Notes: generated from the sequence alone by a model not told the origin. Positions 43,962 to 57,113 are shown, counted from the stretch's first letter. The stretch is DNA of 64,000 bases from Bdellovibrio svalbardensis (GCF_029531655.1 NZ_JANRMI010000002.1:62001-126000); one strand, 5' to 3'. Translations and numbers: made by a program.

Positions 43962-44243
43962 ATGGAAGTGTTTAGGAATTTTCGCGGAATCATTTTGTTA
44001 GCATTGGCGACTGAGCTTCTTTGCTCGTGCAGCATCGAGGCGTCGCTCGAGCAACTTATTCCGCAAACCTTTAACACCCCAGAAGCAACTCCCACAAAAG
44101 TTTCTACAGCGCGAGCAACAGGAACAGTGTTTGTCTCAAAGTCAGCTTCTGGTGATGGACGGTACATAGTGAAGAGTGCAGTAGGACCTATGGTCTCTCA
44201 TAGCAAGGTACGTAGCGGAATTTATGATGTGGACTTAAACTAG
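43962..44243 (+). CDS. Short lipoprotein upstream of the fibre protein
   Basis: A 93-residue protein with a lipoprotein signal (GIILLALATELLCSC; lipidated Cys near residue 23). The mature part is short and beta-prone, Thr/Ser/Ala-rich (PEATPTKVSTARATGTVFVS) and ends GIYDVDLN. The start lacks a strong ribosome site. The next gene, the giant fibre protein, begins 7 bases after its stop, so the two are co-transcribed. It may be an outer-membrane anchor or assembly factor for the fibre; this is inference from position. Confidence 0.65.
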   Translation: MEVFRNFRGIILLALATELLCSCSIEASLEQLIPQTFNTPEATPTKVSTARATGTVFVSKSASGDGRYIVKSAVGPMVSHSKVRSGIYDVDLN

Positions 44244-44250
44244 GCGGTTG

Positions 44251-47200
44251 ATGATGAAGTTACTTCTGATCACTTCAATACTGATGGGATTATCAAGTGC
44301 ACAGGCCAACCCTGTTGGTATTCACTTGAGCGGACATATCAGTAATAGCGCGACAGGGACATCGTTGACCTCGGCAAATGTCGACTTCGTTATTAAGGTC
44401 CTAAGCCCGGGCGGCTGTCTTCTTTATTCTGAAAATCATTTAGGTAAAAACCTTTCTTTGACTGCTGGAAATTTTGACATCGATATTGGAACTGGGACAA
44501 CAGCTTACAATGTGTATGATAGCGTAACTCCACAAAGCACAGATTCCGTCGTTAAAGTTTTTGATAAAGCAGCACCTTCATTGTCTGGTTTGACTAATGT
44601 AGATGCCGGTGGGTGCCCAGGCGGGGCTTATACTCCGGCAGCGAATGATCTGCGTCAGGTCCGCATCGAGTTTGATGCTCATGATGGTTATGGTGTTCAG
44701 ATTATTCAGCCCTATCACCGGGTGACGAATATCCCTTTTGCGTTGTTAGCCGAAAAGTCCAGCGATTCTGCAAGTCTGCAAGGAAAAGTACCGAGCGATT
44801 TTGTTTTGAATTCTGATGTCGCAACGGTTGTTCCGGCAAATGAAACCGATCCTTCGGTGAAGGCTTTTGCGAAAGCGAATCTGCCTTCTTGTAATGTGGG
44901 CGAGGTGCTAAAAGCTTCAGGTGGAGTTCTGAGTTGCGTGAGTGCCGGTGGTGCTGTTGCTTTGGCAACGACAACTTCGACGGGCATCGTGCAAGCGGGC
45001 AGTGGCCTGGCTATAGATGGCGCCGGTGTTTTATCCACTGACAATGCTGCGATCAAATCTGGCTTGGGCTTGGGAATAATGGATGTCTCAGGCTTGCAAA
45101 CTGCTTTAAACGATCGCGTTTTGTATTCTCAAATGCCGACTTGTACAGCGGGACAAACTTGGACATTCGTTTCCCCAGTGGGTGGATTTGTTTGTACTTC
45201 GACCTCGATCACCGCTTCGCAGGTGAGTGATTTTAGCGCGGCCGTTGATGCGCGAATCGCTGCTGATGCCACAAAACTACCTTTGAGCGGCGGCACCATG
45301 ACTGGTGCTATCGATATGAATGGTCAGAACTTAACTCTGACCGGTTATATTACGATGAATCCTTCGAAATCTTTGCACTTGTCTAACAACGCTGTGGATC
45401 CAGTGGGCTTGACTCCTGCAGACAAAGGTAAGATTTGGTTTAACTCGACAAGCAATGAAATGAAATACTGGGATGGGACTCAGGCCAAAGTTATTGGGAC
45501 TGCGGGTGCGGGCCTGCAGTCAATGAATGGTTTGAGCGACAATGCTCAGACTTTTGCTTTGGGCACGAGTGGTACTGACTTTAATATTAATTCCGCTTCT
45601 GGCGTGCATACTTTCAATTTACCAAGTGCTTCTGCTTTAAATCGTGGTCTTTTAACCGCAGCGGATTATACGACATTCTCTAATAAACTTTCTGCGGTCA
45701 GTGGCAGTACTTTGCCTTCTGCCCAAATTTGGGTTGGTAATGCCGGTGGGAATGCGGCCGCCGTATCACTCAGCGGTGATGTGACAATTGATATTGCGGG
45801 TGTTACAACTTTAAAAAACACTGGCGCTGCTGGAACTTACTACAAAGTGACAACGGATGCGCAAGGTCGCGTTTCAAGTGGTGTCTCGACACTGGCTGTT
45901 TCAGATGTAACAAATCTTCAAACTGATTTGGATGCGAAAGTTCCATACGCTCAATTGGCAACTTGTACTGATAATCAAACTTTGAAATTTATTTCACCAG
46001 TGGGTGGCTTTACGTGTGTGAACATTGCAATCACCGCTTCACAGGTGACTGATTTCAGTACGGCTGTGGATGCGCGAATTGCCGCAGATACGACGAAGCT
46101 GCCAGTTGCTGGTGGCACCATGACAGGTACCCTCAACATGGGTGCCCAAGATATTACGAATGCGGGAAATTTATCTTTAGCTTCAAATAAAAATCTTCAA
46201 TTGGGCTCTTATGCAGCGGATCCATCAACGGCAGGTTGGGGAGCAACGGAAAAAGGTCGGACTTGGTTTAATACCACCAGTAACCAGATTAAATATTGGG
46301 ATGGAGCTGCAGTGCAGGCTCTGGGTATTTCTGGTGCGGGTCTAACTTCATTCAATGGTCAAGTAGGCTCGACTCAAACTTTAGCGGTGCCTGGCACTAC
46401 GGGGGCAGCACCAAATTGGTCTTCTGCAGGGAATGCTCATACATTGAATATCCCGATGGCATCTTCTGTGGGAACAACAGCGGGTCTTTTAAGTAAAACT
46501 GATTACGATTCTTTCGCTGGTAAACAGGCGGCCGGTAACTATGTTACGGATCTAACTGGCGATGTGACGGCCATGGGGCCTGGCTCTGCGGCAGCAACGA
46601 TTGCTGTGGGCGCTGTTAATTCTTCTAAAATCTTAGATGGCACTATTTTAGGTGCTGATATGAATTTCACTGGCGTCAACAATGCGACTTCAGGAATTGT
46701 AGTCGTTGATTCAGCGGGTAAGTTTAATAACTTCACCTGTGCAACCGCAGGTCATGTCGCAACCTGGACCGCGACGGGTTGGACATGTCAAGCTCCAGCA
46801 ACCAGTGGAACGGTCACAAGCGTAGGAACAGGCACGGGACTAACGGGTGGTACGATCACTGGCTCTGGCACTATTTCATTAGCTAACACCGCGGTGACTG
46901 CGGGTTCTTATGGTTCAGCAACTCAAGTTGGAACTTTCACAGTCGATGCTCAAGGTCGTTTGACTGCAGCGGGCAATGTGACGGTGACTCCGGCGTGGTC
47001 TTCGATCACAGGGACGCCGACAACTCTTTCGGGTTACGGCATCACAGATGCTCAGTCTTCCACATTGGCGGATGGTAAAATTCTAGTTGGTAATGCTTCG
47101 AATGTAGCAACGGCTCAAACGATGAGCGGTGATGCCACACTATCTAATGCTGGAGCGTTGACATTGGCCTCAAGCGGTGTGACTGCGGGAACTTATTCTA

Positions 47201-50200
47201 AAGTGACTGTCGATGCAAAAGGTCGCGTGACTGTTGGAACGAGTATCGCTTCAGGTGATGTGACAACGGCTCTTGGTTATACGCCGCTAAATAAAGCGGG
47301 CGATGTGATGACCGGAAACTTTGGTCTTAATGGTGTGACCTCAGATCCGGGCGGTCTTGTCGCTGGTGATAGAGGTAAGATGTGGTATCGCACGGATACC
47401 AACGAAGTTAAATATTGGAACGGAACAAGTGCGGTTGCTCTTGGTGTTTCCGGTGCCGGTCTTACTTCATTGAACGGTCAAAATGGTTCCACTCAAACAT
47501 TTGCAGTAGGAACGACGGGCGCAGCGCCAGCATGGTCATCATCTTCCAATACTCATACATTGAATATCCCATTGGCGTCTTCTGCAGGAACAACAGCAGG
47601 TCTGTTAAGTAAAACAGATTACGATTCTTTCGTAGCAAAACAACCAGCAGGTAACTATGTCACAGCGTTGACTGGTGATGTGACTGCGGCGGGGCCAGGT
47701 TCAGCGGCAGCGACGATTGCTGCGAATGCAGTGACGACTGGTAAAATTCTTGATGGCACTATTTTAGGCGCTGATTTGAATTTCACTGGCGTGAATACAG
47801 CAACTTCAGGAATTGCTATCGTAGATTCAACGGGCAAGTTTAATAACTTCGCCTGCGGAACTGCGGGCCATGTTGCAACGTGGACGGTGACTGGTTGGGC
47901 CTGTCAGGCTCCGGCAACAAGTGGAACTGTGACTAACGTTGCGACGGGAACTGGATTGACTGGTGGTCCAATCACAGGGACTGGTACCATTTCATTGGCT
48001 AATACCACAGTTACGGCAGCGTCTTATGGCTCTGCAACTCAGGTGGGAACGTTCACCGTAGATGCTCAAGGTCGCTTGACTGCTGCATCGAATGTGACGG
48101 TGACACCAGCTTGGACTTCGATCACGGGCAAGCCGACAACACTTGCGGGCTATGGCATCACAGATGCTCAGTCTTCAACTTTGACAAATGGGAAAGTCTT
48201 TATCGGTAATGGTTCAAATGTTGCCGCGGAACAGACTGTCTCTGGCGACGCGACTATATCAAATACTGGCGCTTTGACACTTGCTTCAAGTGGTGTGACC
48301 GCGGGAACTTACTCGAAAGTCACAGTGGATACAAAAGGTCGTGTGACTGTGGGAGCGAATATCGCTTCTGGAGATGTAACGACAGCGTTGGGCTTTACTC
48401 CTCTAAATAAAGCCGGTGATGTGATGTCAGGGCTTTTGGGTCTTAACGGTGTTGCTACAGATCCAGGTGGGCTTGTCGCCGGTGACAAAGGTAAGATGTG
48501 GTATCGCACGGATACTAATGAGATTAAATACTGGAACGGCTCTACGGCAGTTGCTCTTGGTGTTTCAGGAGCAGGATTGACATCTTTAGGCGGGCAAACA
48601 GGTTCTGCGCAAACGTTTGCGATTGGAACAGCGGGCGCTGCGCCAGCATGGTCTTCAGGTTCTAATGTTCACACTTTGAATATTCCTTTGGCGTCTTCTG
48701 CGGGTACAACTGCAGGTCTTCTTAGCAAAACTGATTACGATTCTTTCGTAGCGAAGCAACCAGCAGGTAACTATTTGACAGATTTAACTGGGGATATAAC
48801 TGCCACGGGTCCAGGATCTGCAGCTGCGACGATTGCGGCAAATGCTGTAACCACTGCGAAGATCAACAATCTCGCAGTCACAGATGCAAAAATTAATGAT
48901 GTGTCTGTCAATAAGATCACCAGTGGCTCAGGAAAATACTTTACTTATGCACCCAACAACATGGCTTGTACAAACGGTCAGACGTTGTCAAAAACAGCAA
49001 ATGGCTGGGAGTGTGCCAATGCGAGTGCTGGCACAGTGACAAGCATCATCGCTGGTACGGGCTTAACGGGTGGAACAATCACAAGCACAGGCACTATTGG
49101 TCTGGGGACAGAACTGACGGGGGTAAACGGATTGGCGACAACGGGCTTCGTTCAAAGAACGGGCGCGGGTGCTTACTCTACAGTGATTGGCAATACGGTC
49201 GCTTCCAATAATACAGTCGTTCAGCGTGATGGTTCCGGTGTCAGTGGTTTTTATGGTGTTGGAATTCAAGGTTCCACAAGTGGTACTGCGACGATTCAGG
49301 CGCCAACTTCTTTCACGAACTATACTCTAACTTTGCCAACGACGGCGGGGACTGCCAATCAAGTTTTGCAAACCAATGGATCTGGTGTTCTGTCCTGGGT
49401 GGCTCAGTCTGCGGGTGCTGATAATTTAGGTAATCATACGGCAACTCAAAATATTCAATTGGGTGCAAACTGGCTTAGTGGCGATGGTGGCAATGAAGGC
49501 ATTCGTGTTGATGCAACTGGAAATGTTGGTATCAATGCGGCAACGCCCGGCGCTCCTTTAGATATTCAAAATGTCGGTGCCGCAGACAGAATTAGAATTT
49601 CTACCAACGTGGCTGGAAACTATAATGCGATCGGAAACTACAATACCAATGAGATGTACATCCAGCCGTACAGTGTAACCAGAATCTTGCGTGGATATCT
49701 GTATACGGCGGGAAATCAGAAAATGACGACCACGGATACGGCTATTTTGGTTGATAATAATAACGTTTCTTTGGCGGTCGATAAAGGTTCTGTGGGAATT
49801 GGCACAAGCACTCCTGCTGCTCCTCTTGATGTGATCGGTGCTGCAACCACGTCAAATTCTTATGTCAGGGTCATGTCGTTGACAGATACGACGGCGATGG
49901 CAACCGATGTGGGTGGAAGTATTTCCTTCCTGGGTAAATACACATCAGGTGGCGCTAGCACTGATTTGGCCGGAATTAAAGCCGGTAAAACAAATGCTAC
50001 GACAGGTGACTATAGCGGATATCTTTCTCTCTGGACACGCAATAATGGTTCGACACCTGCTGAACGCATCAGAATTGATAATACTGGTAAGGTCGGAATT
50101 GGAACTGTAACTCCATCTATTAAATTGGACGTAGCCGGTGCGGTTCGCGTCGGTACGGATGCGACGGCTTGTGCGGCTGGTATCGCGGGTGCGATTCGTT

Positions 50201-53200
50201 ATAACGCCGGCAATGTCGAGTATTGTAACGGAACAGCATGGACGGCCTTTGCTGCGAGTGGGGCTGGTATTACTTCGTTGAATGGTTTGACAGGAGCTAC
50301 ACAAACTTTTGCGACGGGAACATCTGGAGCAGATTTCAATATCAATTCCACTTCAACAACACATACCTTCAATTTCCCCAATGCCTCTGGGGCAAATCGT
50401 GGTCTTTTGACTTCTGGCGACTGGAACACCTTCAATAGCAAATTAGGAACCGGATCAGCATTTTCTGGTGACGTATCTGGAACTTCCACAACAATGTCCG
50501 TTGATAAAATTAAAGGCACAGCGGTTAGCGGAACTGCACCTACTGATACTCAGTTCCTAGTCTATAACAACGGTGCGACTCAGTATGCTCCTGTGAGTAT
50601 GTCGGGTGACGCAACGATGGCTAACACGGGCGCTGTGACTTTGAAAAGCACCGGTACTGCTGGAACTTATACAAAGGTAACAACAGACGCTCAAGGTCGC
50701 GTGACTTCTGGTACTACACTTGTTGCTACGGATATCCCAGGATTAGATTGGGCTAAAATTACCTCTGGTAAGCCAACGACACTGATTGGTTACGGAATCA
50801 CTGATGGCGTGCAAAACACTGGTGGCACTCCAAGCATGCAAACAGGTCTGTTTGCTTCTCGTCCCGCATTTGGAACTGCGGGCAGAATTTATATCTCTTC
50901 TGACACGAACACGATCTATCGCGACACGGGTTCAGCGTGGGTTGCGATTGGTGACGGTGCTGGTGCAGGTACTGTGACTTCGATCACAGCTGGAACTGGT
51001 TTAACGGGTGGTACAATCACTTCAACGGGAACTATTGGTTTAGGTACAGAGTTGACAGGATTGAACGGACTTTCAACGACGGGTTTTGTTAAGCGCACCG
51101 GTGCAGGAACTTATACTACCGCGGCAGCGAGCTTAACGGCCGATGTGTCTGGAGTTTTGCCGATTGCAAACGGTGGTACAAATTCTTCGACTGCTTTGAC
51201 GAACAATCAGCTGATGTATTCAGGTGCGGGTGCGATTAAAGAGCTGGGCGTAATGAATGACGGGCAAATCGTGGTCGGCAAAACTTCGAATGCGCCACAA
51301 ATCGTTACGATGAGTGGCGATGTGACTGTATCGAATACGGGTGTGACGACGGTTGGAAAAGTGAATGGCACAACAGTCACGGGTGTGGGTTTAGCAACGA
51401 ATAACATTTTGCAAAACACAGGTGCTGCGATCACTGCGAATAACGTGTTAGTAAGTAACGGAACTGCGACGGGTGTGACAGCACTAACAAGCCCTGCAAG
51501 CGGTGTGTTGACTTCTTCGGGTACTGTTCCTGCTTGGTCTACATCTTTGCCGGCGACGATGGGTGGTACAGGGCAGACGAGCTTTGCAATCGGTGATTTG
51601 CTGTATGCTTCGACAACGACAGCAATGTCTCGCTTGCCAGCTGCAACATCTGGTTATGTTTTAACAAGTAATGGTGCGGGTACTGCTCCTAGTTGGCAGG
51701 CAGTATCAGGTGTTATCGCAGGATTGACTGCGGGACGTGTGACTTTGTCTACGGCTGCTAATTCGGTGGGTGATAGTCCGAACTTTACATTCAACTCATC
51801 ATCTGGCGCGTTGGCGATCGGTGGTACTACACCAGCCTTTACATCTGCAGGTGCATTGACTGTGCAAGGTGCTGCAGGTTCAGCGACGACTGTTGGTAAC
51901 TCGGGCACGACTTCTAGCTTGGTATTGCAGTCTGGTTCCGGTGGTATTTCTCTTGCCGGAAACACTTCTGTTTCTGGTTCGAATACCTTTGCGACTGGTA
52001 CCGGTGCGGTAAGCTTGAATGGTGCGACGACAGTTGCAGCCAATCAGAACTTAACGATGGCTTCTGGCACGGGGGTTTATACTCAAACCTTCACTGGGAC
52101 AACAACGGATGCGGCCTCGATCATCGCGAATGCATTGACGACAGGAACAGCGCTGAATTTGACTTCTTCAAGCGCAAGTTTAAATTCAACTGATGGCTTG
52201 TTGTATGTTGCGAACACAGGTGCTTCAACTTCTGGAATGGTTGCTAGAATTCAGTCGAACTCTACAGCTGGCACAGGTTTGACGGTATTGGCAAATGGCA
52301 ATGTCGGTGCGGGAACTGCAGCGCCCACATCTGTTCTTGATATTAACGGTGCAGAGACTATGCGTGGTATGGCAGCTCCAGGGCTGTCGGCTGCGGGACA
52401 AGGAAGAATCTATTTTGATTCTACTGCGAATAAGTACAAAGTTTCTCAAAATGGTGGAGCCTACGCGGACCTAGTTCCTGCTGCAGGTGGTGGAGCACTT
52501 TCTAGTATTACCCCTGCAACGACTACGAATACCATCGACAACTTGAACTTCGGACAAATCTGGAACTGGTCATCAGCCACGACTCAAAGTCCAATGAGCA
52601 TCAGTGCGAACGCTCTGACTACAGGTAGTTTGATGAGCCTGACTACTTCTAATGCGACGGTGAACTCTACGAATGGTTTGTTGTATGTAGCGAATACAGG
52701 TGCTTCAACTTCAGGAACTGTTGCAAGAATTCAGTCGAATTCAACGGCTGGTACAGGGCTTACAGTTCTTGCGAACGGCAACGTCGGTATTGGAAATGCC
52801 TCTCCGACATGGCTACTGGATGTTAACGGCGCAGCTCGGTTGAAAGATACATTAACTCAAGAAGGTGTCAGTTCTGCCTCGGGAGATTTGAATTACCATC
52901 AGCTACTCATGGATACTCATAATTATAATATTAATCCAAAATCGGGAATCGCTTTTGGCGGATATTACAATGCAGTTCCAAGCACCACGTTCTTTTCTGG
53001 AATCAATGGCGGTAAGGAAAATGGAACTTCAGGCAATACTGCTGGATATTTAGCATTAGTTACACAGCCGAATGCGGGCAGCCCGACAGAGCGTTTGCGC
53101 ATAAGCTCCACTGGTTACGTCGGAATCGGTACGACAGCTCCATCATCAGTTCTCGATGTTAACGGTGCTGTAACCGTGCGCGGAATGGTGGCGCCAGCGG

Positions 53201-54342
53201 TCTCTGCTGCAGGTCAAGGAAGAATCTATTTTGATTCAACATCGAATACTTACAAAGTTTCTCAAAATGGTGGAGCGTATGTGGATTTGATTAGTACTGC
53301 CACAGGAGATTTCAAAGCAGATGGTTCCGTCAGCATGACCGGTCCATTGAAGGCCTCTACAGGATCTGCGGCGGCGCCATCGCTTACCTTTAGTTCAGAT
53401 CCTAATACCGGCTTTTACTCAGGTGGTGCTGGACTGCTAGAGATGACTACGACTGGAGTTCAAAGATTCGAAGTGAGCAGTGTGGGTCTTATTTCTCCAA
53501 ACGCAAATGGTCCTAAATTGACTTCCACCGCTGGAACGGCGGCAGTACCAGCCTTTGCATTCAATGGAAATACCAATTCAGGAATGTGGTCGCCTGGTTC
53601 AAATGCATTGGCATTCTCTTCAAATGGTTCAGAACGTATGAGAATTGATTCGAGTGGCAACGTTGGGATTGGCACTACTTCTCCAAGTTACAGTCTCGAT
53701 GTGCAAAAAGATCAGAATGCTGCGACCTCACTTTACGTTCGTAACTGGGTAAGCAGTGGTGGTTCCGCTGCTTCTACTGTCGCAGTTTCAACTTTTGACG
53801 TTGGTGGTGGTCTATGGGCCTTTCCTTCGTTTGGTACTAACGCCGACCTCCAAAAGCGCAACAAAGTCGTATTGGAAGCATCAACTGGTAACGGCGTTTT
53901 GATCACAGCAGGTTCGGCAACAGGTACTGTCGGATTGCGAACAATAGCAAGTACGTCACCGTCATTGTTGGTAGATACAACTGGCAACGTCGGTATCGGC
54001 ACGACCGCACCTAACAGCAGACTGGAAGTCGCCGGTGGTTCTCTGACAACGGCTTACTCTGTGATCGCTTCTTTAACTGTCGACTTTTCTACCGCAAATA
54101 CTATTGCTACAACGGCGGCAGCAGGCACCTTGGTTTTAAATAATATGCGCGACGGAACAAGTTATACTTTGATTGTGCAAAATACAGGTAGCTATACGTT
54201 GTCGGGATCAAGTGTCTCTACCTGGCGTTGTGCTCCGACTTGTCCTAGTGCGGTTGTTTCAAATAGTTCGGGGCATGTTCTGATTACAGTTTTGAAGGCT
54301 GGCACGACAGCTTACGTGAGCTATATCACTGATATGCAGTAA
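44251..54342 (+). CDS. Giant repetitive fibre protein, mosaic-adhesive-trimer-like
   Basis: A 3363-residue exported protein with a signal peptide (LLLITSILMGLSSAQA). Residues about 20-165 form a beta-rich N-terminal domain with a SPGGCLLYSEN phrase and paired cysteines. The rest is phage-tail-fibre-like: repeats such as YKVTTDAQGRVSSG, LTGDVTAMGPGSAAATIA, and GNVGIGTTSPSYSLDV recur throughout. This layout matches the mosaic adhesive trimer proteins reported in Bdellovibrio bacteriovorus, trimeric surface fibres that recognise prey; the assignment here is by architecture. The last about 95 residues (from VIASLTVDFSTANTIATT) look like a distinct beta tip with a CAPTC pair. ATG 44251 follows TTG 44248. 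The lipoprotein precedes it and the RCC1 protein follows. Confidence 0.85.
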   Translation: MMKLLLITSILMGLSSAQANPVGIHLSGHISNSATGTSLTSANVDFVIKVLSPGGCLLYSENHLGKNLSLTAGNFDIDIGTGTTAYNVYDSVTPQSTDSVVKVFDKAAPSLSGLTNVDAGGCPGGAYTPAANDLRQVRIEFDAHDGYGVQIIQPYHRVTNIPFALLAEKSSDSASLQGKVPSDFVLNSDVATVVPANETDPSVKAFAKANLPSCNVGEVLKASGGVLSCVSAGGAVALATTTSTGIVQAGSGLAIDGAGVLSTDNAAIKSGLGLGIMDVSGLQTALNDRVLYSQMPTCTAGQTWTFVSPVGGFVCTSTSITASQVSDFSAAVDARIAADATKLPLSGGTMTGAIDMNGQNLTLTGYITMNPSKSLHLSNNAVDPVGLTPADKGKIWFNSTSNEMKYWDGTQAKVIGTAGAGLQSMNGLSDNAQTFALGTSGTDFNINSASGVHTFNLPSASALNRGLLTAADYTTFSNKLSAVSGSTLPSAQIWVGNAGGNAAAVSLSGDVTIDIAGVTTLKNTGAAGTYYKVTTDAQGRVSSGVSTLAVSDVTNLQTDLDAKVPYAQLATCTDNQTLKFISPVGGFTCVNIAITASQVTDFSTAVDARIAADTTKLPVAGGTMTGTLNMGAQDITNAGNLSLASNKNLQLGSYAADPSTAGWGATEKGRTWFNTTSNQIKYWDGAAVQALGISGAGLTSFNGQVGSTQTLAVPGTTGAAPNWSSAGNAHTLNIPMASSVGTTAGLLSKTDYDSFAGKQAAGNYVTDLTGDVTAMGPGSAAATIAVGAVNSSKILDGTILGADMNFTGVNNATSGIVVVDSAGKFNNFTCATAGHVATWTATGWTCQAPATSGTVTSVGTGTGLTGGTITGSGTISLANTAVTAGSYGSATQVGTFTVDAQGRLTAAGNVTVTPAWSSITGTPTTLSGYGITDAQSSTLADGKILVGNASNVATAQTMSGDATLSNAGALTLASSGVTAGTYSKVTVDAKGRVTVGTSIASGDVTTALGYTPLNKAGDVMTGNFGLNGVTSDPGGLVAGDRGKMWYRTDTNEVKYWNGTSAVALGVSGAGLTSLNGQNGSTQTFAVGTTGAAPAWSSSSNTHTLNIPLASSAGTTAGLLSKTDYDSFVAKQPAGNYVTALTGDVTAAGPGSAAATIAANAVTTGKILDGTILGADLNFTGVNTATSGIAIVDSTGKFNNFACGTAGHVATWTVTGWACQAPATSGTVTNVATGTGLTGGPITGTGTISLANTTVTAASYGSATQVGTFTVDAQGRLTAASNVTVTPAWTSITGKPTTLAGYGITDAQSSTLTNGKVFIGNGSNVAAEQTVSGDATISNTGALTLASSGVTAGTYSKVTVDTKGRVTVGANIASGDVTTALGFTPLNKAGDVMSGLLGLNGVATDPGGLVAGDKGKMWYRTDTNEIKYWNGSTAVALGVSGAGLTSLGGQTGSAQTFAIGTAGAAPAWSSGSNVHTLNIPLASSAGTTAGLLSKTDYDSFVAKQPAGNYLTDLTGDITATGPGSAAATIAANAVTTAKINNLAVTDAKINDVSVNKITSGSGKYFTYAPNNMACTNGQTLSKTANGWECANASAGTVTSIIAGTGLTGGTITSTGTIGLGTELTGVNGLATTGFVQRTGAGAYSTVIGNTVASNNTVVQRDGSGVSGFYGVGIQGSTSGTATIQAPTSFTNYTLTLPTTAGTANQVLQTNGSGVLSWVAQSAGADNLGNHTATQNIQLGANWLSGDGGNEGIRVDATGNVGINAATPGAPLDIQNVGAADRIRISTNVAGNYNAIGNYNTNEMYIQPYSVTRILRGYLYTAGNQKMTTTDTAILVDNNNVSLAVDKGSVGIGTSTPAAPLDVIGAATTSNSYVRVMSLTDTTAMATDVGGSISFLGKYTSGGASTDLAGIKAGKTNATTGDYSGYLSLWTRNNGSTPAERIRIDNTGKVGIGTVTPSIKLDVAGAVRVGTDATACAAGIAGAIRYNAGNVEYCNGTAWTAFAASGAGITSLNGLTGATQTFATGTSGADFNINSTSTTHTFNFPNASGANRGLLTSGDWNTFNSKLGTGSAFSGDVSGTSTTMSVDKIKGTAVSGTAPTDTQFLVYNNGATQYAPVSMSGDATMANTGAVTLKSTGTAGTYTKVTTDAQGRVTSGTTLVATDIPGLDWAKITSGKPTTLIGYGITDGVQNTGGTPSMQTGLFASRPAFGTAGRIYISSDTNTIYRDTGSAWVAIGDGAGAGTVTSITAGTGLTGGTITSTGTIGLGTELTGLNGLSTTGFVKRTGAGTYTTAAASLTADVSGVLPIANGGTNSSTALTNNQLMYSGAGAIKELGVMNDGQIVVGKTSNAPQIVTMSGDVTVSNTGVTTVGKVNGTTVTGVGLATNNILQNTGAAITANNVLVSNGTATGVTALTSPASGVLTSSGTVPAWSTSLPATMGGTGQTSFAIGDLLYASTTTAMSRLPAATSGYVLTSNGAGTAPSWQAVSGVIAGLTAGRVTLSTAANSVGDSPNFTFNSSSGALAIGGTTPAFTSAGALTVQGAAGSATTVGNSGTTSSLVLQSGSGGISLAGNTSVSGSNTFATGTGAVSLNGATTVAANQNLTMASGTGVYTQTFTGTTTDAASIIANALTTGTALNLTSSSASLNSTDGLLYVANTGASTSGMVARIQSNSTAGTGLTVLANGNVGAGTAAPTSVLDINGAETMRGMAAPGLSAAGQGRIYFDSTANKYKVSQNGGAYADLVPAAGGGALSSITPATTTNTIDNLNFGQIWNWSSATTQSPMSISANALTTGSLMSLTTSNATVNSTNGLLYVANTGASTSGTVARIQSNSTAGTGLTVLANGNVGIGNASPTWLLDVNGAARLKDTLTQEGVSSASGDLNYHQLLMDTHNYNINPKSGIAFGGYYNAVPSTTFFSGINGGKENGTSGNTAGYLALVTQPNAGSPTERLRISSTGYVGIGTTAPSSVLDVNGAVTVRGMVAPAVSAAGQGRIYFDSTSNTYKVSQNGGAYVDLISTATGDFKADGSVSMTGPLKASTGSAAAPSLTFSSDPNTGFYSGGAGLLEMTTTGVQRFEVSSVGLISPNANGPKLTSTAGTAAVPAFAFNGNTNSGMWSPGSNALAFSSNGSERMRIDSSGNVGIGTTSPSYSLDVQKDQNAATSLYVRNWVSSGGSAASTVAVSTFDVGGGLWAFPSFGTNADLQKRNKVVLEASTGNGVLITAGSATGTVGLRTIASTSPSLLVDTTGNVGIGTTAPNSRLEVAGGSLTTAYSVIASLTVDFSTANTIATTAAAGTLVLNNMRDGTSYTLIVQNTGSYTLSGSSVSTWRCAPTCPSAVVSNSSGHVLITVLKAGTTAYVSYITDMQ
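46321..48850 (+). repeat. Tandem 1.12-kb repeat within the fibre gene
   Basis: Three successive units begin at 46321, 47440 and 48556, spaced 1119 and 1116 bases apart (373 and 372 codons); the third diverges after about 290 bases. Each begins near the sequence GVSGAGLTSLNGQ and continues through SKTDYDSFVAKQPAGNY and GDVTAAGPGSAAATIAANAV to the next unit. The units keep the reading frame, so their number can change without a frameshift. Confidence 0.85.
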
Positions 54343-54362
54343 AAATATTGGGAAAATATAAA

Positions 54363-57026
54363 ATGCAGATAGGAATTTATATTTTAATTTCAACTCTTTG
54401 GGGAACTCTTAATGCATTAGCTGGTGGAGTACTTCCTGCGGCTATGTGGAATCAGCAGAAATCGCTCAAGGTGAAGCAAGTGTCAGTCGGCTCTAATCAT
54501 GTCTGCACCCTGTTGGAAAATTCCAAAGTGAAGTGCTGGGGATATAATGCCAATGGCCAGCTTGGATTGGAAAATCTAATATACAAAGGTGACGGAGCGG
54601 GGGAAATGGGCGACAGTCTTGCCTTCGTTAATTTGGGAACAGGTCGCAGCGCTGTTCAGATCGCAGGAGGTGGGATGCATACCTGCGCTCTATTGGATAA
54701 TTCAACAGTTAAGTGTTGGGGAGAAGGCAGCAGTGGTCAGCTTGGTCAAGGGAATGGGAACTCGCTAGGTTGGGGGGGCGGTCAAATGGGTGATAGCTTG
54801 CCAGCTATCAACTTAGGTACCGGGCGCAGCGCTGTGCAGATCACGGCAGGCTATTCGCATGCTTGTGCTTTGTTGGATAATTCGACGGTGAAGTGTTGGG
54901 GCGAAGGCAGCAGTGGTCAGCTTGGGATTGGCAGTACCGCAAAAATGGGTGATGGAGCTGGTGAGATGGGTGATAGCTTGCCAGCTATCAACTTAGGTAC
55001 TGGTCGCCGTGCCGTACAGATCTCGGCAGGCTATTCGCATACTTGTGCTTTGTTGGATAATTCGACGGTGAAGTGTTGGGGAAATAACGGCTTTGGACAG
55101 CTTGGCCAGGGAAGTACAACAAATTTGGGCGATGGCGCTGGCGAGATGGGTGATAGCTTGCCAGCTATCAATTTAGGTACCGGTCGCAGCGCTGTGCGGA
55201 TCATAGCAGGTTACTATCATACTTGCGCTTTGTTGGACGATTCGACTGTGAAGTGCTGGGGCTATAACAGCACCGGCCATCTTGGGCAGGGCAGTACTTC
55301 AACTTTAGGTGACGGTGCTGGAGAGATGGGAGATAGCTTGCCAGCGATTAGTTTAGGCACTGGTAGAAAAGCTGTGCAGGTGGCGTTAGGTAATCAACAC
55401 ACCTGTGCTCTGTTGGATAATTCGACGGTGAAGTGTTGGGGAGACAACTCCTTTGGTCAACTTGGTCAGGGGAATTCTACGACATTAGGTGATGGCGCTG
55501 GTGAAATGGGCGATAGCTTGCCTGTGATTAATTTGGGAACTGGTCGTGCAGCCGTACAAATATCTTCCAGTGGAAATCACGTTTGTGCTCTATTGGATAA
55601 TTCAACAGTTAAGTGTTGGGGGAGCAATAATTATGGTCAGCTTGGCCAAGGGCATACTGCTAATTTGGGTGATGGCGCTGGTGAGATGGGCGATAGTTTG
55701 CAAACAATAAAACTTGGTATGGCAACATCACGACTGGCGAAAGTATTCGGTGGGAAATTTTCAAAAGTCAGTCAATTGGTGAGTGGTCCTTTTAGTGTTT
55801 GTGCAATTTTGGAAAATTCTAAATTGAAGTGTTGGGGGCGAAATGACTTTGGCCAACTTGGTCAAGGCAATACATTGAATTTGGGTGATAGTGCTGGTGA
55901 GACAGGAGATAGCCTGCCCTATGTTGATTTAGGTACCGGTCGCACCGCCGTGCAGGTCGCAGTGGGCGACTCTCACACTTGCGCCATTTTAGATAATGCT
56001 GCTGTGAAGTGTTGGGGGAAAAACAACTATGGCCAACTTGGCCAGGGAAATACGAACAACTTGGGTGATGGCGCTGGCGAGATGGGCGACAGTTTGCCAA
56101 CTATTGATTTGGGAACAGGTCGCAGTGCTAAACAGATTGGTGTTGGTCTCGAATATTCATGTGCTTTGTTGGACAATTCAACCGTGAAGTGTTGGGGAGT
56201 GAATTTTTTAGGCCAACTCGGGCAGGGCCATACCAATAATCTAGGTGATGGGGTCGGCGAGATGGGGGACAGTTTAGCGGCGATAAATTTTGGAACCGGT
56301 CGTAGTGTTGTGCAATTGGCAGTCGGGTCACAGTTCAGTTGTGTCATTTTAGATAATGGTGCTCTCAAGTGTTGGGGGGTAAACTCATCGGGCCAACTTG
56401 GATTAGGTACATCGCAAACGATGGGAGATGGTCCTGGCGAAATGGGCGACAGTTTGCCTGTCGTTAATTTGGGAACGGGTCGTAGCGCCGTGCAGGTTTC
56501 CTTGGGAGGAGCAGATGGTTGTGCGCTATTAGATAACTCAACGGTAAAATGTTGGGGATATAACTTTGATGGAGAGCTTGGTCAGGGCCATACCAATAAT
56601 CTAGGCGATGGGGCTGGTGAGATGGGAGATAGTTTGCCAGCTATTAATTTGGGTACGGGGCGTAGCGCTGTGCAAATCGCTAGTGGTGGCTATTTGAGTT
56701 GTGCATTGTTGGATAATTCAACGATGAAATGCTGGGGCAGTAACGCTGCGGGAGGCCTTGGGCAGGAGAGTACAGCAAATTTGGGCGATGGTGCCGGAGA
56801 GATGGGAGATAGTTTGCCCGCGATTAGTTTAGGAACCGGTCGCAGCGCTATATCAATTTCGGCCGGAAGCTATCATGCTTGCGCTGTGCTGGATAATGCG
56901 ACAGTGAAATGTTGGGGGCAGAATGGATACGGCCAAATGGGTCAGGGCAACACTACAGTCAGGGGAGATCAGGCTGGAGAGATGGGTGACAATTTGTCGA
57001 TCGTAAACCTTGGGACAAGTAAGTAG
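54363..57026 (+). CDS. Exported RCC1-repeat double beta-propeller
   Basis: An 887-residue exported protein with a signal peptide (IYILISTLWGTLNALA). It consists of 14 RCC1-like repeats of about 58 residues with the pattern CALLDNSTVKCWG...GQLGQG...GDGAGEMGDSL...LGTGR. A longer linker (SRLAKVFGGKFSKVSQL) after repeat 7 divides it into two sets of seven, each expected to close as a seven-bladed propeller. Every repeat has two cysteines ten residues apart, so each blade probably holds a disulfide. ATG 54363 gives the signal peptide; TTG 54348 is an alternative. It follows the fibre gene by about 20 bases. RCC1 propellers bind partners; a role in surface display or binding is inferred. Confidence 0.85.
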   Translation: MQIGIYILISTLWGTLNALAGGVLPAAMWNQQKSLKVKQVSVGSNHVCTLLENSKVKCWGYNANGQLGLENLIYKGDGAGEMGDSLAFVNLGTGRSAVQIAGGGMHTCALLDNSTVKCWGEGSSGQLGQGNGNSLGWGGGQMGDSLPAINLGTGRSAVQITAGYSHACALLDNSTVKCWGEGSSGQLGIGSTAKMGDGAGEMGDSLPAINLGTGRRAVQISAGYSHTCALLDNSTVKCWGNNGFGQLGQGSTTNLGDGAGEMGDSLPAINLGTGRSAVRIIAGYYHTCALLDDSTVKCWGYNSTGHLGQGSTSTLGDGAGEMGDSLPAISLGTGRKAVQVALGNQHTCALLDNSTVKCWGDNSFGQLGQGNSTTLGDGAGEMGDSLPVINLGTGRAAVQISSSGNHVCALLDNSTVKCWGSNNYGQLGQGHTANLGDGAGEMGDSLQTIKLGMATSRLAKVFGGKFSKVSQLVSGPFSVCAILENSKLKCWGRNDFGQLGQGNTLNLGDSAGETGDSLPYVDLGTGRTAVQVAVGDSHTCAILDNAAVKCWGKNNYGQLGQGNTNNLGDGAGEMGDSLPTIDLGTGRSAKQIGVGLEYSCALLDNSTVKCWGVNFLGQLGQGHTNNLGDGVGEMGDSLAAINFGTGRSVVQLAVGSQFSCVILDNGALKCWGVNSSGQLGLGTSQTMGDGPGEMGDSLPVVNLGTGRSAVQVSLGGADGCALLDNSTVKCWGYNFDGELGQGHTNNLGDGAGEMGDSLPAINLGTGRSAVQIASGGYLSCALLDNSTMKCWGSNAAGGLGQESTANLGDGAGEMGDSLPAISLGTGRSAISISAGSYHACAVLDNATVKCWGQNGYGQMGQGNTTVRGDQAGEMGDNLSIVNLGTSK

Positions 57027-57087
57027 TCTCAGGTTTGATGCTGTTTACGCTATCTTTAATTTTTTTGAAGCCACAATAGTTGAGGAT

Positions 57088-57113
57088 CCGGTTGTTAAAA
57101 ACCGGGAATTTTT
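57088..57113 (+). terminator. Terminator after the RCC1 gene
   Basis: CCGGTT (57088-57093) pairs with AACCGG (57100-57105) over a 6-base loop and is followed by GAATTTTT. It ends the fibre cassette transcript about 60 bases after the RCC1 stop. Confidence 0.6.

What the first reader, a model, noticed from the sequence alone, without database searches (positions are those of the whole stretch)
43962..57026. Fibre cassette: lipoprotein, 3363-residue adhesin and RCC1 double propeller
Three genes within about 13 kb run head to tail with 7- and 20-base gaps. Mosaic adhesive trimers are known as Bdellovibrio prey-recognition fibres, but the co-transcribed lipoprotein and the 14-repeat RCC1 protein suggest a defined assembly or binding partner set. 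The propeller could cap, anchor or extend the fibre.
Basis: partly seen in the sequence, partly recalled or inferred. Interest (0 to 1): 0.75.

Follow-up and report, generated by a model that had tools for sequence, protein, structure and literature searches.

The report
Anchored fibre with separate propeller cap
In this predatory bacterium a giant prey-recognition fibre is encoded together with a small lipid-anchored protein at its base end and a separately made propeller protein at its tip end, and related genomes carry the same three-part plan with interchangeable tip proteins, which suggests how such predators anchor and retarget their fibres.

Summary
In detail: a 93-aa lipoprotein, a 3,363-aa mosaic adhesive trimer (MAT) fibre and a 14-repeat RCC1 protein run head to tail with 7- and 20-bp gaps in a Bdellovibrio genome.

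Comparative work turns it into a recurring module. (1) The lipoprotein belongs to an undescribed family. 33 of 44 small members from the genus lie next to a MAT gene, as do 10 of 20 loci sampled outside it. Lipoprotein and MAT N-domain divergence track each other (Mantel r 0.92; within genomes 0.95). (2) The fibre ends in a tip domain with no match in the PDB or phages. About 70% of MATs with this tip (23 of 33, against 3 of 61 other MATs) are followed at once by a secreted, non-lipidated protein: RCC1, NHL or Kelch propellers, LamG lectin-like and others. Many share a short aromatic motif just after the signal peptide. A giant fibre with the same tip subtype, followed 7 bp later by the same RCC1 subfamily, occurs in another genus.

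Best explanation: lipoprotein anchor, MAT shaft, and a separately encoded exchangeable cap docking on a socket tip, working like T2/S16 phage gp37-gp38. Binding is inferred, not shown. RCC1 genes in general do not sit beside fibres; only this tip class does.

The parts
43962..44243 (+). small lipoprotein (93 aa), proposed outer-membrane anchor/adaptor of the fibre N-terminus
   Evidence: lipobox and signal peptide in the sequence; family with two own-genome copies directly upstream of long MATs, and relatives next to MATs genus-wide
44028..44048 (+). codons for the mature N-terminus C-S-I-E-A-S-L, the motif shared by small MAT-linked lipoproteins and by large propeller lipoproteins
   Evidence: DNA pattern scan of the own genome: 8 hits, 5 of them small MAT-linked lipoproteins, 1 an RCC1 lipoprotein divergent from a MAT
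44251..54342 (+). giant MAT fibre (3,363 aa from ATG; 3,364 from TTG 44248), NS74 type
   Evidence: N-domain aligned with 23 other MAT N-domains; region similar to the Bd2133 crystal structure 8ond; no S74 domain found
44251..44850 (+). signal peptide and conserved MAT N-terminal domain, Bd2734-like subtype
   Evidence: orthologous subtype of Bd2734 (PDB 8okw match of L104 protein)
53599..54051 (+). beta-helix segment of the fibre similar to Bd2133
   Evidence: phmmer E 6e-14 to 8ond_A, fibre residues 3118-3268
53995..54339 (+). C-terminal tip domain (about 112 aa), proposed socket for the cap protein
   Evidence: recurs at the extreme C-terminus of other MATs; profile A7 finds it in 39 of 66 family genomes; no PDB or phage match
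54363..57026 (+). secreted RCC1 protein, 14 repeats (7+7), proposed cap adhesin
   Evidence: Pfam, repeat spacing, plain signal peptide
54441..54461 (+). A-M-W-N-Q-Q-K just after the signal peptide, proposed docking motif
   Evidence: regular expression in 15 of 25 caps against 40 of 652 other proteins with a predicted signal peptide and 2 of 50 RCC1 proteins outside MAT operons
54468..55733 (+). first propeller (7 RCC1 repeats)
   Evidence: 60-residue period
55764..57023 (+). second propeller (7 RCC1 repeats)
   Evidence: 60-residue period after a 72-residue step
57087..57106 (+). terminator-like hairpin after the last gene
   Evidence: consensus scan only; such hits are not above shuffled background

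Best explanation
The cassette encodes a three-part surface adhesin. Shown by sequence: a small lipoprotein, a giant MAT fibre and a secreted, non-lipidated double-propeller protein in one co-directional run, with equivalents in related genomes. Inferred: the lipoprotein sits in the outer membrane and holds the conserved MAT N-domain; the fibre projects; the propeller is exported on its own, and its short N-terminal aromatic motif docks on the trimeric tip domain, so that the propeller, not the tip, contacts prey or another surface. Because tips and caps are separate genes, one socket class can be fitted with RCC1, NHL, Kelch, LamG or other heads, so specificity can change by gene exchange.
For: Lipoprotein: 33 of 44 small family members in the genus have a MAT N-domain gene on the same strand within 250 bp; lipoprotein and MAT N-domain distances correlate, r 0.917 over 33 pairs and 0.953 within genomes, p about 0.0016. 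Outside the genus 10 of 20 sampled loci have a MAT directly downstream, most of them with a 4-base overlap. Across the order 43 of 44 lipoprotein-positive genomes are MAT-positive, against 41 of 75 others. Cap: 23 of 33 MATs with this tip are followed directly by a secreted non-lipidated protein, against 3 of 61 other MATs, Fisher p 3e-11. Caps are RCC1, NHL, Kelch, DUF5122, DUF285 or LamG by Pfam. Tip similarity tracks cap type, permutation p 0.0006. The tip subtype of the window is found with the same RCC1 subfamily in another genus (L315, 60% identity, 7-bp gap) and, unlinked, in G034 (tip 83%, RCC1 66%). Caps share a motif after the signal peptide. A Bd2133 MAT tip crystal bound an N-terminal peptide at 1:1 per trimer (PMC10769870).
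Against: No binding, localisation or transcription data. Congruent trees are also expected if adjacent genes are merely inherited together. About 30% of tip-class MATs have no adjacent cap, and many MATs have no adjacent lipoprotein; the conserved lipoprotein locus exists without an adjacent MAT in G015, G032 and L267. The docking motif was defined after looking at the caps and is absent from most LamG caps and from L231. AlphaFold2 models of the lipoprotein and the RCC1 protein were of low confidence. The peptide-binding tip of Bd2133 is not detectably homologous to this tip.
Confidence: 0.58

Rival explanations
1. The lipoprotein is a pilotin or periplasmic chaperone that helps the fibre reach or cross the outer membrane, and is not the lasting anchor.
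For: Small size, tight translational overlap and co-divergence with the MAT N-domain fit a dedicated chaperone equally well.
Against: It shares its lipid-proximal motif with large propeller lipoproteins that look like surface proteins, which fits surface anchoring better; no homology to known pilotins was found, but this was tested only by Pfam on the window protein.
Confidence: 0.25
2. The RCC1 gene is a passenger: MAT loci are exchange hot spots and adhesin genes accumulate there without interacting.
For: RCC1 genes in general are not near MATs (1 of 42 within 2 kb); MATs and RCC1 genes are numerous in these genomes; the RCC1 orthologue in G034 stands alone.
Against: Coupling is restricted to one tip class, with gaps of a few bases, and tip subtype tracks cap type even when unlinked in G034.
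Confidence: 0.2
3. The downstream secreted protein is a folding or assembly chaperone for the fibre tip, as T4 gp38 is for gp37.
For: Position directly behind the fibre gene matches phage tail-fibre chaperones (PMC6851490).
Against: The downstream proteins have unrelated folds (propellers, LamG, DUF285) and are large and secreted, unlike a conserved chaperone family.
Confidence: 0.1
4. The RCC1 protein binds elsewhere on the fibre or on the predator surface, for example as a base plug or anchor.
For: No structural data place it at the tip; double propellers can act as scaffolds.
Against: The genetic coupling follows the C-terminal tip class, not the N-domain: capped fibres carry several N-domain subtypes.
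Confidence: 0.12

Closest known systems
Mosaic adhesive trimer (MAT) fibres of Bdellovibrio bacteriovorus (Caulton et al. 2024, PMC10769870)
   Same: Signal peptide, conserved N-domain, long fibre shaft with Bd2133-like beta-helix, variable non-S74 tip; N-domain subtype orthologous to Bd2734
   Different: Three to four times longer than most; the tip class is not among the solved ones; that paper's main text does not mention lipoproteins, operons or propellers and calls the surface partner of the N-domain unidentified
T2/S16-type phage long tail fibre gp37 with gp38 adhesin
   Same: Trimeric fibre capped by a separately encoded adhesin, attached through its N-terminal part with conserved tryptophans (PMC6851490, PMC12892980); the proposed cap motif here is also aromatic and N-terminal
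   Different: Cellular secreted proteins with their own signal peptides, many unrelated cap folds; no gp38 family match seen in the Pfam or PHROGs scans run; tip not matched in phages
RCC1-like domain proteins (UVR8, HERC2, RCC1)
   Same: RCC1 repeats, clear sequence similarity to solved propellers
   Different: Secreted bacterial protein with 14 repeats; no Ran or chromatin context

Membership tests
MAT superfamily | Signal peptide followed by the conserved beta-rich N-domain of about 130 aa | tested here: met
   Homology to 18 other own-genome N-domains and alignment of 24 MAT N-domains with 10 invariant columns
MAT superfamily | Beta-helical fibre region as in solved MATs | tested here: met
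   Residues 3118-3268 match the Bd2133 structure 8ond, E 6e-14
MAT superfamily | Trimeric, surface-displayed, binds prey epitopes | not testable with these tools
   Needs protein and cells
MAT, S74 subgroup | C-terminal S74 autoprotease | tested here: not met
   No Pfam S74 match; another domain occupies the C-terminus: NS74 subgroup
Bacterial lipoprotein | Signal peptide with lipobox cysteine | tested here: met
   ...LLCS|C-SIEASL; the cysteine is invariant in the aligned family
RCC1/RLD propeller family | RCC1 repeats above the curated cut-off | tested here: met
RCC1/RLD propeller family | Closed seven-bladed propeller(s) | tested here: inconclusive
   Repeat count 7+7, but AlphaFold2 mean pLDDT 43
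Phage gp38-type tip adhesin (works like) | Encoded directly downstream of the fibre gene whose tip it caps | tested here: met
   Gene position only; capping itself untested
Phage gp38-type tip adhesin (membership) | Sequence homology to gp38 adhesins | tested here: not met
   Pfam and PHROGs show RCC1 only for the window protein

The most novel reading that the evidence does not exclude
Bdellovibrio and relatives run a family-wide plug-and-socket prey-recognition system: a common socket tip on MAT fibres, held to the cell by cognate lipoproteins, accepts a library of separately encoded, exchangeable cap adhesins (propellers and lectin folds), so prey range evolves by swapping or sharing caps, even from unlinked genes.
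Probability: 0.45. Interest if true: 0.87.

Novelty: new variant of a known kind. Interest (0 to 1): 0.77.

Why it matters
How MAT fibres are held on the predator surface is stated as unknown in the paper that defined them. The small lipoprotein family gives a concrete, testable candidate, including the orthologue just upstream of Bd2734. The tip-cap coupling suggests that some predator adhesins are two-part devices like T2-type phage tail fibres, with the host-contacting head on a separate gene. That would explain large RCC1, NHL and LamG secreted proteins that otherwise look unrelated to predation, and would change how prey range is read from a genome.

Tried and rejected
RCC1 as a general MAT partner: rejected, 1 of 42 RCC1 genes within 2 kb of a MAT. 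RCC1 as a chromosome or Ran factor: rejected, the protein is exported. Phage origin of the tip: no match in phage records; RCC1 matches in phages are under 30% identity. Tip structure by sequence: only chance-level antibody matches. AlphaFold2 of the lipoprotein (pLDDT 58) and of the RCC1 protein (pLDDT 43) were too weak for fold searches. Naming the species through GTDB contigs gave only a Bdellovibrio sp. MAG (UBA4095, apparently the genome handled as G017) and an Oligoflexia MAG. GC content of the cassette (47-50%) is slightly above the window average; no clear sign of recent transfer.

Full report
CHECK OF THE OBSERVATION. The three genes are present as described. Lipoprotein 43962-44243, fibre 44251-54342 and RCC1 protein 54363-57026 lie on the + strand with gaps of 7 and 20 bp if ATG starts are used; TTG starts at 44248 and 54348 are also possible. 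The lipoprotein has a lipobox. The fibre and the RCC1 protein begin with ordinary signal peptides; the RCC1 protein has no lipobox. Pfam gives RCC1_2 at E 1e-118 with 14 stretches. The 14 CWG motifs are spaced exactly 60 residues apart, except 72 between the seventh and eighth, so 7+7. AlphaFold2 showed 14 three-strand units but at mean pLDDT 43, so the propeller closure rests on family membership (best solved relatives UVR8 and HERC2). The gaps leave no room for terminators. A terminator-like hairpin follows the RCC1 gene, but such hits are not above background.

THE FIBRE IS A MAT. Its first 200 residues match 18 other MAT N-domains in the same genome and align with 23 others from this and related genomes. 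Residues 3118-3268 match the crystal structure of Bd2133. The closest N-domain subtype in other species is that of Bd2734: the 843-aa and 627-aa MATs of locus L104 match the deposited tips 8okw and 8oks, and their lengths are those given for Bd2734 and Bd2740 (PMC10769870). The window fibre is thus an elongated relative of Bd2734 with another tip.

THE LIPOPROTEIN IS A CONSERVED PARTNER GENE. In this genome small lipoproteins precede three other giant MATs directly (L033, L035, L093) and one follows a MAT array (L041). In other species the Bd2734-type MATs are preceded by the same gene. The mature N-terminus C-S-x-[DE]-A-[ST]-[LI] is so specific that a degenerate DNA pattern for it gave eight hits in the 3.9-Mb genome: five MAT-linked small lipoproteins, one RCC1 lipoprotein divergent from a MAT, one other large lipoprotein and one chance hit. 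Genus-wide, strict filtering left 77 hits in the other genomes. 59 passed an automatic lipobox test and a few more looked genuine by eye; about 40 are small, and the large ones scanned were mostly propeller proteins of various families. Adding the five own copies and removing two doubtful ones gives 44 small members; 33 have a MAT N-domain gene on the same strand within 250 bp. Two arrangements exist: directly upstream of MATs with divergent N-domains, often overlapping by 4 bases, and directly downstream of the canonical MAT array. Lipoprotein and N-domain distances correlate strongly (r 0.917; permutation maximum 0.307), also within genomes (r 0.953, p about 0.0016). Outside the genus, 10 of 20 sampled loci have a MAT immediately downstream. 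Of 119 genomes in the order, 44 carry the lipoprotein and 43 of these carry a MAT. One of the 44 (G117) does not appear in the truncated MAT table and is taken as negative. The correlation shows that the genes diverge as a unit. It does not by itself show contact.

THE RCC1 GENE IS ONE OF MANY CAPS BEHIND ONE TIP CLASS. RCC1 genes as such are not fibre neighbours: of 42 in other Bdellovibrio genomes one lies within 2 kb of a MAT. The coupling follows the C-terminal tip. The last 112 residues of the window fibre recur in five other MATs among the loci first fetched. All of these are followed by a secreted propeller or LamG protein, directly or, in the C1:1128-1150 kb locus of this genome, after two intervening genes. 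A tip profile (A7) hits 39 of 66 family genomes in 11 of 20 genera and finds nothing in the PDB; the window tip has no match in phages. In nearly all of the 30 loci read the tip ends the protein (one runs on by 169 residues, one by a single residue); in 20 the next gene, starting within -35 to +20 bases, encodes a secreted, non-lipidated protein (one of these, L292, was called by eye from a twin-arginine-like N-terminus). Together with the window, L231 and L042 that is 23 of 33, against 3 of 61 MATs without the tip. The count falls to 21 of 31 after merging near-identical loci. If a conserved 145-153-aa protein with a hydrophobic N-terminus behind one MAT group is counted, the control rises to 8 of 61, which does not change the conclusion. 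The cap folds are RCC1, NHL, Kelch, DUF5122, DUF285 and LamG, and some have no Pfam match.

SPECIFICITY OF TIP AND CAP. Tips with the same cap type are more alike than expected (difference 0.133 in identity, permutation p 0.0006). The window tip subtype (66-83% identity) was seen in two other genomes, and both also hold the window RCC1 subfamily: in L315 (G084, another genus) seven bases downstream at 60% identity, in G034 unlinked, about 0.9 Mb away, at 66%. In G034 the tip fibre also has a lipoprotein match at its start. Caps share a short motif just after the signal peptide (GFWQKR, GFWKKKR, AMWNQQK): a regular expression matches 15 of 25 caps, 40 of 652 other proteins with a predicted signal peptide and 2 of 50 RCC1 proteins outside MAT operons. 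The expression was written after looking at the caps, and it misses most LamG caps, so it is suggestive only.

TRIADS. The order lipoprotein, tip-class fibre, secreted cap is found in the window (RCC1); in L093/L039 of the same genome (RCC1 after two intervening genes); in G013 (Tat-exported RCC1); and in G007, G006, G031 and G002 (NHL propeller). For G006, G031 and G002 the lipoprotein-fibre adjacency comes from coordinate arithmetic, not from reading the sequence. 11 of 39 tip-class MATs in 19 genus genomes have the lipoprotein at the start of the fibre frame.

MECHANISM. Shown: gene content, order, signal types, conservation and co-variation. Inferred: the lipoprotein tethers the MAT N-domain, whose surface partner was called unidentified in 2024; the secreted cap docks by its N-terminus on the tip. 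Two published facts make this plausible. In T2/S16-type phages a single gp38 adhesin caps the trimeric gp37 fibre through conserved tryptophans in its N-terminal attachment domain (PMC6851490; PMC12892980). A MAT tip crystal (Bd2133) bound an N-terminal peptide at one per trimer, although that tip is not detectably homologous to this one. The system works like gp37-gp38; it is not a member of that family.

LIMITS. Signal peptides were called by a simple script. In the library searched, no paper describing the lipoprotein family or the tip-cap coupling was found; subscription journals were not searched.

Noticed in passing
own genome C4:213000-236000 (L036, L094): An RCC1 lipoprotein (CTLDASV) is divergent from a 2,046-aa MAT, which is followed 4 bp later by a 1,394-aa secreted repeat protein (looks like an LVIVD-type propeller, not tested) whose ends resemble MAT capping motifs.
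   Followed up: partly
own genome C1:1128.8-1150 kb (L093, L039): Lipoprotein, 3,526-aa fibre sharing 76% identity over about 1,200 aa of shaft with the window fibre, a small methyltransferase-like gene, a TPR-like gene, then two Tat-exported RCC1 proteins. A homologous TPR-like gene follows a tip-class MAT in G018 (L305).
   Followed up: partly
L041, L153, L160, L171, L267 and others: The canonical lipoprotein is followed by a conserved gene with the motif VVDVRRNITL and, where seen, a PrmA-like gene, also in another genus and also where no MAT is adjacent.
   Followed up: partly
L151, L161, L170, L178: A 208-219-aa lipoprotein (CSIEASLQDLAG or similar) with a C-terminal part like the small family lies opposite a 605-650-aa MAT ending in CDGDGDGF, which is itself followed by a conserved 145-153-aa protein.
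   Followed up: no
L104, L106: Bd2740-type MATs are preceded at 53 bp by a different 92-aa lipoprotein (CSDVTPQVSFLKGQ); an RCC1 lipoprotein of this genome (C1:835 kb) begins similarly (CTDVVPKVSLLRGQ).
   Followed up: no
own genome C4:464000-474000 (L040): A Tat-exported RCC1 protein with the motif GFWKKKR stands without an adjacent MAT: a possible orphan cap.
   Followed up: no
own genome C5:252949-254196 (L101): A lipoprotein RCC1 relative (49% identity to the window protein); the match runs through one in-frame TGA.
   Followed up: no
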